64,000 bases of DNA from Chlorobium sp. (lineage in GTDB: Bacteria; Bacteroidota; Chlorobiia; Chlorobiales; Chlorobiaceae): NCBI GenBank assembly GCA_005862225.1, contig SZXV01000002.1:434001-498000 (forward strand), read 5' to 3'. This document shows positions 45,156-47,671 of this stretch, in pieces; the stretch's first letter is position 1, and the number at the start of each line of letters is the position of its first letter. The translations under genes and the position numbers were made by a program. The notes under the pieces were generated by a model that saw only the letters and a list, made by a program, of their open reading frames with translations, was not told where the DNA came from and searched no databases.

Positions 45156-45170
45156 GAAAATGCTGGTTTT

Positions 45171-45234
45171 GGCCAGATATGGAGTTGCGCATTTGCAATA
45201 ATAACCATCATGGTTAAAAACAACATATCTGGCC
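45171..45234. repeat. inverted repeat in the convergent gap after the DUF4438 gene
   Basis: Perfect 11-bp arms GGCCAGATATG (45171-45181) and CATATCTGGCC (45224-45234) enclose 42 bases that contain a second small inverted repeat, AACCA/TGGTT. It fills most of the 99-bp gap between the convergent DUF4438 and inhibitor genes. It has no T-run, so it is either an unusual terminator or a protein-binding site. Confidence 0.55.
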
Positions 45235-45254
45235 GAAAGGTGGAGTTCACGATT

Positions 45255-45584
45255 CTAAATCACCGTAACCTGAAAAGACTCGATTTTTGCTGGTGGGGTT
45301 CCTTTTTCCCATGGTCGTCTCAGGGAAAATTTTACCTCAACTGATCCTGTGCCTATCGCTTCGAGAATATAGGTGCTTTCCACGCTGTAGGTTTGGAGAG
45401 GTGCGGGATGAACAGGGGATGTTTTTCCCGGAGGCCCGGTACGAACCAGTACCACACCCTGGGGTCCGACTATTTCGGACTCCCAGGTGTATCCGGCACT
45501 TCCAAGACTTCCGAGTGCCAGCTGATACTCGCCGCCAGGGCGAAGTGTTATCTCAGACGATGCTTCCAAATACCACTCCTTCAT
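45255..45584 (-). CDS. chagasin-like cysteine protease inhibitor (I42 type)
   Basis: The 109-residue protein is read in a frame different from that of the protease and overlaps its end. Chagasin-like features are the beta strand EITLRPGGEYQLALGS, the GSAGYTWES segment (about 28-36, the L2 loop region, where the NPTTG core is degenerate), IGTGSVEVKF (the L4 region) and the L6 signature RRPWE at 89-93. These loops block papain-type active sites in known family members. The start may be this ATG, an ATG at 45599, or TTG at 45569, which has an ideal AAGGAG sequence 6 nt upstream. No signal peptide is visible. Confidence 0.8.
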   Translation of the reverse strand: MKEWYLEASSEITLRPGGEYQLALGSLGSAGYTWESEIVGPQGVVLVRTGPPGKTSPVHPAPLQTYSVESTYILEAIGTGSVEVKFSLRRPWEKGTPPAKIESFQVTVI

Positions 45585-47505
45585 GCCACCCGGCACCATC
45601 GCGCCAGTAATGCTGAAGTTTGTTGTCGGTACGAAGTACGATGACTTCAAGGTTGAAGCCGAAACTTCCTTCAACCAGCGAAATAACGGACTGAACATTA
45701 TGCCCGAAAGTCGCACTTTGCCGCCACAGACCATCACCCTGATTGTTGCGCCACCAGTGCTGGACGACTCCTCCAACAGCGACACAAAGCTCGAAATTCC
45801 CGACTGCTTTTTCGTTGGCGGCACCGTATGAGCCTTCGATCATGCATGGGGGACTGCTTACTCCATTTCCGAATTGGACTCCGACATTCCAAACCATACC
45901 GTGGTCGTTATCGCGCCAGCAATGCTGCATTTTGCCGGAAGTCAAGACGCATACCACTTCAAGATTTCCTTGTGTTCCAAAGTGGCTCTGGACCAAACTT
46001 GCTCCGCTGTAAGCCACATTAGTTCCAAACTTTGCGCCGTTATGCCATCCACCGCCGTCTCTCCAGCAATGGGTCAGTTTGTTGTCGGCAGTGCGCACCA
46101 CAACTTCAAAATTTCCTGGGGCACCATAGTTTCCTTGAATGAAACCCGGGATTCCTGCGGTATCGGGTGGTCCGAAAATGCCAGCATCATTCCATGGTCC
46201 GGAAGGCTGACGGAACCACCAATGGTGAAGTCTATTCGAAGTGGTGAGATGAACCGATTCAAAATTGCGGTTGAATGTGGTTGAGATGAGGGTTGGACAA
46301 GATGCTGCGTCATTGCCAAAACTTACTCCTTTATTCCATGGAAATCCTGTTGTGCTGTTGTCGCGCCACCAATGTTGCACCTTGTTGCCTGGGCCAGTGG
46401 TCAGCAACTCGAAATTGCGGTGGGAAGCGCCATTGCCACTTTCAAGCATACCGCCATTGTGCATCCGCCGTTTTGTCCAGGGATCAGGATTAACACCTGT
46501 AAGGCCTACTTTGGCGCTGCTGTCGATACCTACTTCACCGTAACCAATTTTGATGTATCCTCCATCACCCCATCCAGCTCCCCAGGAATTTTTTACGATC
46601 CAGCAATTCAGTGTATCGTCATATCCAACAACAAGCATAACATGCCCGCCTTCTACTTTGTTTGGTTGGTTGCCAACCATTGCCTGTTTGTGATAGACAC
46701 CTGTTCCGTAGTAAAAGAAATCTGTCCAGACCGTCATTCCGCAAACCAGGGGTCCAACAGTGTCGAGCCATCTTTTCTGGTCAGCAACGCTACCGACGTG
46801 GGTGTAGGCAGGTATTCTGACAGAGCGTCCCGAGCGGTCTGAAGATGGGGTATAGGGGACAGCATCGTGTGGACCACCACCTGTGCCGCCGCAGCCAGAG
46901 CAGGCTGCTGTTGTGACTGGCCAGGCGAAACAGCCTGGGTCTGCTACACCATTGTCTTTCATCCAGTTGAGGGCATTTTCAGGATTTCCGCATTGACAGC
47001 ATGTTGCGTGTAATCCCTTATGGACGTCGCCTTCGGAGAGCCATGGCCATACACAATGTTCAATGCGAACCATAGCCTCTACCAGGGCGACAGCGCCAAA
47101 TACCCAGCAGGCTTCGCAACCATTTTGATTTCGAATGGTCGTAATCCATGGCCATCCCCATCTGTTTCGCCAGTCAACCACCGTGGGTATTGGGTCGCGG
47201 CTTGTTATTTCTCCCTCTCCAGCGGTTAATCCCTGCACAGAACCAATGTACAGTGCCGGTTTTGAGACCATTGCCTGTGGAATGCCGTTGGCAAGACGTC
47301 TTTCTAAAATAAAGGGGTTGTTCGTTGGCACGGCAAGCAGATTTACAAAATCAAGGGGCTTGATTTGAGCTGCCGGTACAAAGTTGTCTGAAAATCCGCC
47401 AAGCCTGAACTTGGGAAGTTCCGCAAGATTCAAAAGATTTTCATTGACTCGCCAACGGGCTTGATTTTGTTTAAGCGATGCTTTGAGGTCAAGAGCAATA
47501 GGCAT
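45553..47505 (-). CDS. papain-like cysteine protease (C1A) with W-rich repeat domain
   Basis: The 650-residue protein has three parts. Residues 1-105 form a pro-region-like segment. Residues 106-345 are the peptidase, with Q127, catalytic C133 (NQNGCEACWVF), H288 (EGGHVML) and N306 (VKNSWGAGWGDGGY). Residues 360-650 hold six W-rich repeats (pattern NFEvv...KLqHcWRdg..W..g..FG), resembling PLL/tectonin-type propeller lectins. Cysteines cluster at 169-205. The start is set by a perfect AAAGGAG 7 nt before the ATG at 47505; no signal peptide is apparent there or in the 16-residue upstream extension. The last 32 bp overlap the inhibitor gene. Confidence 0.88.
   Translation of the reverse strand: MPIALDLKASLKQNQARWRVNENLLNLAELPKFRLGGFSDNFVPAAQIKPLDFVNLLAVPTNNPFILERRLANGIPQAMVSKPALYIGSVQGLTAGEGEITSRDPIPTVVDWRNRWGWPWITTIRNQNGCEACWVFGAVALVEAMVRIEHCVWPWLSEGDVHKGLHATCCQCGNPENALNWMKDNGVADPGCFAWPVTTAACSGCGGTGGGPHDAVPYTPSSDRSGRSVRIPAYTHVGSVADQKRWLDTVGPLVCGMTVWTDFFYYGTGVYHKQAMVGNQPNKVEGGHVMLVVGYDDTLNCWIVKNSWGAGWGDGGYIKIGYGEVGIDSSAKVGLTGVNPDPWTKRRMHNGGMLESGNGASHRNFELLTTGPGNKVQHWWRDNSTTGFPWNKGVSFGNDAASCPTLISTTFNRNFESVHLTTSNRLHHWWFRQPSGPWNDAGIFGPPDTAGIPGFIQGNYGAPGNFEVVVRTADNKLTHCWRDGGGWHNGAKFGTNVAYSGASLVQSHFGTQGNLEVVCVLTSGKMQHCWRDNDHGMVWNVGVQFGNGVSSPPCMIEGSYGAANEKAVGNFELCVAVGGVVQHWWRNNQGDGLWRQSATFGHNVQSVISLVEGSFGFNLEVIVLRTDNKLQHYWRDGAGWHEGVVFGSIV
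45576..45581 (-). promoter_or_regulatory. internal Shine-Dalgarno sequence for the inhibitor gene
   Basis: AAGGAG lies inside the last codons of the protease gene, 6 nt before an in-frame TTG (45567-45569) that would begin the inhibitor. This spacing is ideal and favours translational coupling of inhibitor to protease. The nearby ATG at 45584 has a weaker GGTGG upstream. Confidence 0.5.
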
Positions 47506-47671
47506 TTTGGTGCTCCTTTTGAATTGGTTATGCCGGGAAGCAAATAACACCAACCATGTCCGGCTTCAAGGAAGGTGTGTTGTTGCATACAATTCAGAAA
47601 AAGAATCGTCTAACAAAAGATGAATGGGTGATATCTGCGTGAAAGATGTGCTTGATAAACGCACTATCTTA

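What the first reader, a model, noticed from the sequence alone, without database searches (positions are those of the whole stretch)
45255..47505. Papain-like protease overlapped by a chagasin-like inhibitor gene
A C1A protease with all four catalytic positions (Q127, C133, H288, N306) is followed, in a different frame and with a 17-32 bp overlap, by a small gene with the RPW loop and GxG loop of I42 inhibitors. An AAGGAG inside the protease gene is ideally placed for a TTG start of the inhibitor. A protease and its likely inhibitor encoded as a coupled pair, within otherwise conserved bacteriochlorophyll surroundings, looks like a self-protected effector or a toxin/antidote-like unit. The pairing and function are inference; both domains are read directly from sequence.
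Basis: partly seen in the sequence, partly recalled or inferred. Interest (0 to 1): 0.75.

Follow-up and report, generated by a model that had tools for sequence, protein, structure and literature searches.

The report
Papain-lectin protease with coupled chagasin-like inhibitor
A green sulfur bacterium carries a papain-like protein-cutting enzyme fused to a sugar-binding-type propeller, and the gene directly behind it encodes a small chagasin-like blocker; the same enzyme-plus-blocker arrangement recurs in at least five other bacterial phyla, so these bacterial blockers probably keep the cell's own protease switched off.

Summary
Window 47505-45553 (-) is a C1A papain-family protease (Pfam E 2e-31, four catalytic residues invariant in six relatives) with a C-terminal PLL-type lectin propeller. 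A separate 104-codon gene, 45569-45255 (-), overlaps its last 17 bp in another frame and matches Inhibitor_I42 (E 1.5e-9; its model's six best PDB matches are all I42 inhibitors). The TTG start is supported: in one relative a stop codon directly precedes it.

The pairing is not chance. The same genome has a second, divergent pair. In 25 genomes outside Chlorobiaceae holding both families, 14 have them adjacent or fused (0.03 expected). Relatives occur in Pseudomonadota, Acidobacteriota, Bacillota, Actinomycetota and Deinococcota. Three proteins carry I42 in front of C1, in the propeptide position.

Most likely the inhibitor is a co-translated cognate silencer protecting the producing cell, working like staphopain/staphostatin with other families. 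'Effector' or 'toxin/antidote' is unproven: no secretion signal, and Massilia has the protease without any I42. Nothing in the papers I could search describes the pairing; one states the role of bacterial chagasins is not elucidated.

The parts
45553..47505 (-). C1A papain-family protease with C-terminal lectin-type propeller, 650 aa
   Evidence: ORF; Pfam Peptidase_C1 E 2.2e-31; relatives 47-83% identical over the whole length
47513..47518 (-). AAGGAG ribosome-binding site of the protease, 7 nt before ATG 47505
   Evidence: read from sequence
47191..47505 (-). N-terminal region, residues 1-105: no evident signal peptide, no I29 propeptide match
   Evidence: Pfam finds nothing here; no hydrophobic stretch
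46513..47190 (-). Peptidase_C1 catalytic domain, residues 106-331
47125..47127 (-). Q127, oxyanion-hole glutamine
   Evidence: invariant in alignment A1
47107..47109 (-). C133, catalytic cysteine
   Evidence: invariant in alignment A1
46642..46644 (-). H288, catalytic histidine
   Evidence: invariant in alignment A1
46588..46590 (-). N306, catalytic asparagine
   Evidence: invariant in alignment A1
45556..46479 (-). PLL-type lectin beta-propeller, residues 343-650 (DUF346 repeats)
   Evidence: DUF346; PLL5 and PLL2 by sequence; 22 best Foldseek hits are PLL-family lectins
45576..45581 (-). AAGGAG inside the protease gene, 6 nt before the TTG start of the inhibitor
   Evidence: sequence; same in L006 and L009, GAGG-type in L005
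45582..45584 (-). alternative ATG start, not conserved (absent in L005 and L006)
45255..45569 (-). chagasin-family (I42) inhibitor gene, TTG start, 104 aa
   Evidence: Pfam E 1.5e-9; model closest to EhICP2, PaICP, chagasin; purifying selection
45553..45569 (-). 17-bp overlap of the two genes, different frames
   Evidence: same -17 arrangement in L009, L005 and, from the conserved TTG, L006

Best explanation
A protease and its dedicated inhibitor made together. Ribosomes finishing the protease re-initiate at the TTG 17 nt before the end of its gene, so inhibitor is made next to each protease molecule. The I42 protein folds as an Ig-like domain and plugs the active-site cleft with its L2 and L6 (RPW) loops, keeping the papain domain silent in the cytoplasm, where the protease has neither signal peptide nor I29 propeptide to hold it back. 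The protease becomes active when separated from the inhibitor, most plausibly after release by lysis or an unidentified export route, where the propeller would tether it to glycans. Shown: the two families, the coupling layout, recurrence and fusion. Inferred: inhibition of this protease, silencing as the purpose, glycan tethering, release.
For: Family matches and the I42 model, whose six best PDB hits are all I42 inhibitors. Catalytic residues invariant. Propeller-type proteases: 7 of 8 have I42 directly behind at -35 to +16 nt. A second, divergent pair in the same genome with a CV39L-like propeller. In 25 genomes outside Chlorobiaceae with both families, 14 adjacent or fused against 0.03 expected; Chlorobiaceae 20 of 26. 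All three C1 genes recovered on plasmids by this search (Bacillota, Actinomycetota, Deinococcota) have I42 downstream. Three proteins have I42 N-terminal to C1. Both genes under purifying selection. Both proteins lack evident signal peptides in the window family.
Against: No inhibition, expression or release is shown. L2 (LGSAG) and L4 depart from the canonical motifs. Massilia L007 keeps an intact protease and has no I42 in its draft genome. In many short Chlorobiaceae pairs the inhibitor seems exported while the protease shows no signal peptide, which does not fit simple cytoplasmic silencing there. The catalytic domain was predicted with low confidence.
Confidence: 0.7

Rival explanations
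1. Antagonism or defence cassette: the protease is a weapon (exported effector against neighbours, or a suicide effector freed on phage attack) and I42 is the immunity protein or antidote.
For: Pairs are mobile cassettes: 77% identity of the protease to Nitrosovibrio across phyla, empty site at bchE, presence on plasmids. Three other Chlorobium pairs lie beside type I or III restriction systems or a TIR gene. A caspase gene lies near the pair in L005 and in the Deinococcus plasmid.
Against: No PADLOC match for the pair itself. The window pair lies between DUF4438 and bchE, not in a defence island. No trafficking domain or signal peptide, no relatives found in phages or viral contigs. Massilia lacks the antidote.
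Confidence: 0.25
2. Ordinary housekeeping or nutrient protease regulated by a nearby inhibitor gene, without a conflict or self-protection role.
For: C1A proteases are common; secreted pairs exist (L108-L110).
Against: Patchy distribution and mobility. The lectin propeller and missing signal peptide do not suggest nutrient digestion.
Confidence: 0.15
3. The inhibitor acts on foreign proteases, as shown for Pseudomonas syringae Cip1, and its place behind the protease is incidental.
For: Cip1 of P. syringae is secreted and inhibits tomato proteases; most Pseudomonas genomes lack C1A (PMC5014320). Solo I42 genes occur on Acetobacter and Vibrio plasmids.
Against: Adjacency or fusion about 500-fold above chance; no evident signal peptide on this I42; overlap conserved; I42 fused to C1 in three proteins.
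Confidence: 0.06
4. The two frames are one gene split by a sequencing error or joined by frameshifting.
For: The frames overlap.
Against: Same 17-bp out-of-frame overlap in independently sequenced L009, L005 and L006; the protease ends at a complete propeller repeat; other pairs are separated by 3-65 nt.
Confidence: 0.01

Closest known systems
Staphopain-staphostatin operons and SpeB-Spi (own knowledge, not tested here)
   Same: Papain-fold cysteine protease followed in the same operon by a small cytoplasmic inhibitor thought to protect the producing cell
   Different: Other families (C47 or C10 proteases; staphostatin or Spi inhibitors); those proteases are secreted zymogens with signal peptides; no lectin propeller
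Chagasin family I42: T. cruzi chagasin, P. aeruginosa ICP, P. syringae Cip1
   Same: Pfam I42 match, Ig-like fold, RPW loop
   Different: L2 NPTTG and L4 GxGG replaced; no evident signal peptide, unlike the Pseudomonas proteins; gene coupled to a C1A protease, while most Pseudomonas genomes have none (PMC5014320)
PLL/CV39L-type beta-propeller lectins
   Same: Propeller fold, repeats and best structure matches
   Different: Here fused behind a C1A protease domain; sugar binding untested
Peptidase zymogens with inhibitor-like propeptides
   Same: Three related proteins carry I42 in front of C1, where a propeptide would be
   Different: In the window the inhibitor is a separate gene behind the protease

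Membership tests
Chagasin family I42 | Significant match to the family profile | tested here: met
   PF09394 E 1.5e-9, above cut-off; PaICP by phmmer E 1.9e-6
Chagasin family I42 | Ig-like fold | tested here: met
   AlphaFold model pLDDT 78; best six Foldseek hits are I42 inhibitors
Chagasin family I42 | L6 RPW/F motif | tested here: met
   RRPWEKG in the window; varies in relatives: RPM in L009, RSF in L008
Chagasin family I42 | L2 NPTTG motif (variable among accepted members) | tested here: not met
   LGSAG; only the final G and the following YxW are kept
Chagasin family I42 | L4 GxGG motif (variable among accepted members) | tested here: not met
   TYSV at the aligned position
Chagasin family I42 | Inhibits C1A peptidases | not testable with these tools
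   needs an enzyme assay
Peptidase family C1A | Family profile and Q-C-H-N catalytic set | tested here: met
   PF00112 E 2.2e-31; Q127, C133, H288, N306 invariant
Peptidase family C1A | Signal peptide and I29-type propeptide (common in the family, not required) | tested here: not met
   no match or hydrophobic stretch in residues 1-105
PLL-type lectin | Propeller fold and repeats | tested here: met
PLL-type lectin | Sugar binding | not testable with these tools
   needs glycan binding assay
Toxin-antitoxin / polymorphic toxin with immunity protein | Trafficking domain or signal peptide on the toxin | tested here: not met
Toxin-antitoxin / polymorphic toxin with immunity protein | Toxicity neutralised by the neighbour | not testable with these tools
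   needs expression experiments
Staphopain-staphostatin | Inhibitor gene directly behind a cysteine protease gene | tested here: met
Staphopain-staphostatin | C47 protease and staphostatin-type inhibitor | tested here: not met
   matches are C1 and I42

The most novel reading that the evidence does not exclude
C1A-I42 pairs are a widespread, mobile bacterial protease-antidote module used in conflict (against phage or neighbours), in which a lectin-guided papain is kept silent by a co-translated chagasin until a trigger separates them; eukaryotic chagasin-papain pairs would then echo a bacterial system.
Probability: 0.22. Interest if true: 0.8.

Novelty: new variant of a known kind. Interest (0 to 1): 0.5.

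Why it matters
The natural target of bacterial chagasins is open: a 2016 paper says their role 'has not yet been elucidated' and points to host proteases because most Pseudomonas genomes lack C1A enzymes (PMC5014320). The survey here shows that in several other phyla I42 is encoded beside, or fused to, a C1A protease, which names a concrete target and makes the question testable with two purified proteins.

Tried and rejected
Single split gene or frameshift: rejected by relatives. ATG start for the inhibitor: not conserved. Phage origin: no match in phages or viral contigs. Known defence family: no PADLOC or NCBIfam hit for the window proteins. Promoter and terminator scan: no more sites than shuffled sequence. 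Protease structure model: propeller good, catalytic domain below pLDDT 50, so nothing was read from it. Matching export status as proof of pairing: dropped, because many short Chlorobiaceae pairs seem to have an exported inhibitor with an unexported protease (start codons chosen by a simple rule). Twenty unpaired long C1 genes from the survey: no PLL propeller and no I42 nearby. The 2002 paper on the chagasin family (Rigden et al.), which may discuss gene context, is not held.

Full report
WHAT IS THERE. Window 47505-45553 (-) encodes 650 aa with Peptidase_C1 at residues 106-331 (E 2.2e-31), closest in the PDB to dipeptidyl peptidase I. Q127, C133, H288 and N306 are invariant in six relatives. 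Residues 343-650 form a beta-propeller: DUF346 repeats, Photorhabdus lectins PLL5 and PLL2 by sequence (E 4e-8 and 2e-6), and the 22 best Foldseek matches of the model are PLL-family lectins (pLDDT mostly 60-93 there, below 50 in the catalytic half). No evident signal peptide or I29 propeptide was seen.

THE INHIBITOR GENE. It lies in another frame at 45569-45255 (-). Inhibitor_I42 E 1.5e-9; P. aeruginosa ICP by phmmer E 1.9e-6. The AlphaFold model (pLDDT 78) matches EhICP2, amebosin and PaICP best, with PbICP-C and chagasin close behind. The TTG start with AAGGAG 6 nt upstream is supported: L005 has a stop codon directly before the TTG, L006 lacks the ATG. The overlap is then 17 bp. L6 RPW is present. 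The three motifs and their role are from PMC2607524.

BOTH ARE REAL GENES. Synonymous change exceeds nonsynonymous change in every pairwise comparison: window against L009, pS 0.67 and pN 0.10 for the protease, pS 0.52 and pN 0.23 for the inhibitor (many synonymous sites are near saturation). The inhibitor diverges faster (63% against 82-83% identity).

RECURRENCE. Close relatives with the same overlapping pair: Chlorobium L009, a Lac Pavin proteobacterium L005, Nitrosovibrio L006; more distant: Acidobacteriaceae L008 (35-bp overlap), G221 (3-nt gap, L087), G447 (16-nt gap, L107). Massilia L007 has an intact protease and no I42 found in its genome. The same genome has a second pair at G000:C2, whose protease carries a CV39L-like propeller (E 7e-86, below that model's cut-off) and whose I42 starts 40 nt behind it; G056 and G069 share it.

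SURVEY. Chlorobiaceae, 86 genomes: 27 with I42, 26 of these with C1, 20 adjacent. Gammaproteobacteria, 274: 5 with both, 4 adjacent or fused. Acidobacteriota, 247: 15 with both, 8 adjacent or fused. Other Bacteroidota: 5 with both, 2 adjacent. Outside Chlorobiaceae 14 of 25, against 0.03 expected. The genomes differ in assembly quality, and contig breaks can only hide pairs. On plasmids, all three C1 genes found with this protease are followed by I42: Priestia (22 nt), Streptomyces canus (37 nt), Deinococcus (one gene between). Three proteins carry I42 in front of C1 in one chain (G206, G289, G384). Solo I42 genes also exist. Twenty long C1 genes without a nearby I42 also lacked the PLL propeller.

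SURROUNDINGS. In three relatives the DUF4438 gene and bchE are convergent and about 90 bp apart; of 30 bchE loci only the window has the protease next to it. In G031 the matching DNA spans only the two genes plus a few dozen bases (window 45262-47542), about 13 kb from bchE in other surroundings. The pair looks like a self-contained mobile cassette. Other Chlorobium pairs adjoin restriction systems or a TIR gene.

MECHANISM. The best reading is a co-translated cognate inhibitor that keeps the protease silent in the producing cell; release and a target outside the cell are inference. This works like staphopain/staphostatin (own knowledge), but both families differ, so it is not a member. Effector or antidote status is not shown.

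NOVELTY. Two known families in a pairing that I found in none of the papers searched. A 2009 paper reports the proposal that bacterial chagasins may inhibit own or host proteases (PMC2784779), so the idea is not new; the cross-phylum pairing, the fusion and the lectin propeller are the additions. Library coverage is limited, so earlier mention cannot be excluded.

Noticed in passing
L115 13113-19501; L174 11830-18001; L173 1717-4293: Three other Chlorobium C1A-I42 pairs lie next to type I RM, type III RM with Fic/Doc and PDC-M59A, and a TIR gene with a type I R fragment, which hints at defence islands.
   Followed up: partly
L005/L120 3865-4692; L041 6778-10705: Caspase-family genes near C1A-I42 pairs in two unrelated bacteria (a Lac Pavin proteobacterium and a Deinococcus plasmid).
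   Followed up: partly
L041 4812-6726; L106 (G424): A three-gene order C1 - small gene - I42 occurs in Deinococcus and Acidobacteriota; the small protein resembles the C-terminal part of the protease (by eye, RNxW...GW motif).
   Followed up: no
L042-L063 (Chlorobiaceae short pairs): Short C1 genes without an evident signal peptide are followed by I42 genes that often begin with a signal or lipoprotein-like sequence: an export mismatch that cytoplasmic silencing does not explain.
   Followed up: partly
window 45169-45236: Inverted repeat GGCCAGATATG ... CATATCTGGCC between the inhibitor gene and the DUF4438 gene; could be a terminator or an insertion scar.
   Followed up: no
L007 4932-6890: Massilia eburnea has an intact protease relative, but no I42 was found in its genome.
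   Followed up: yes
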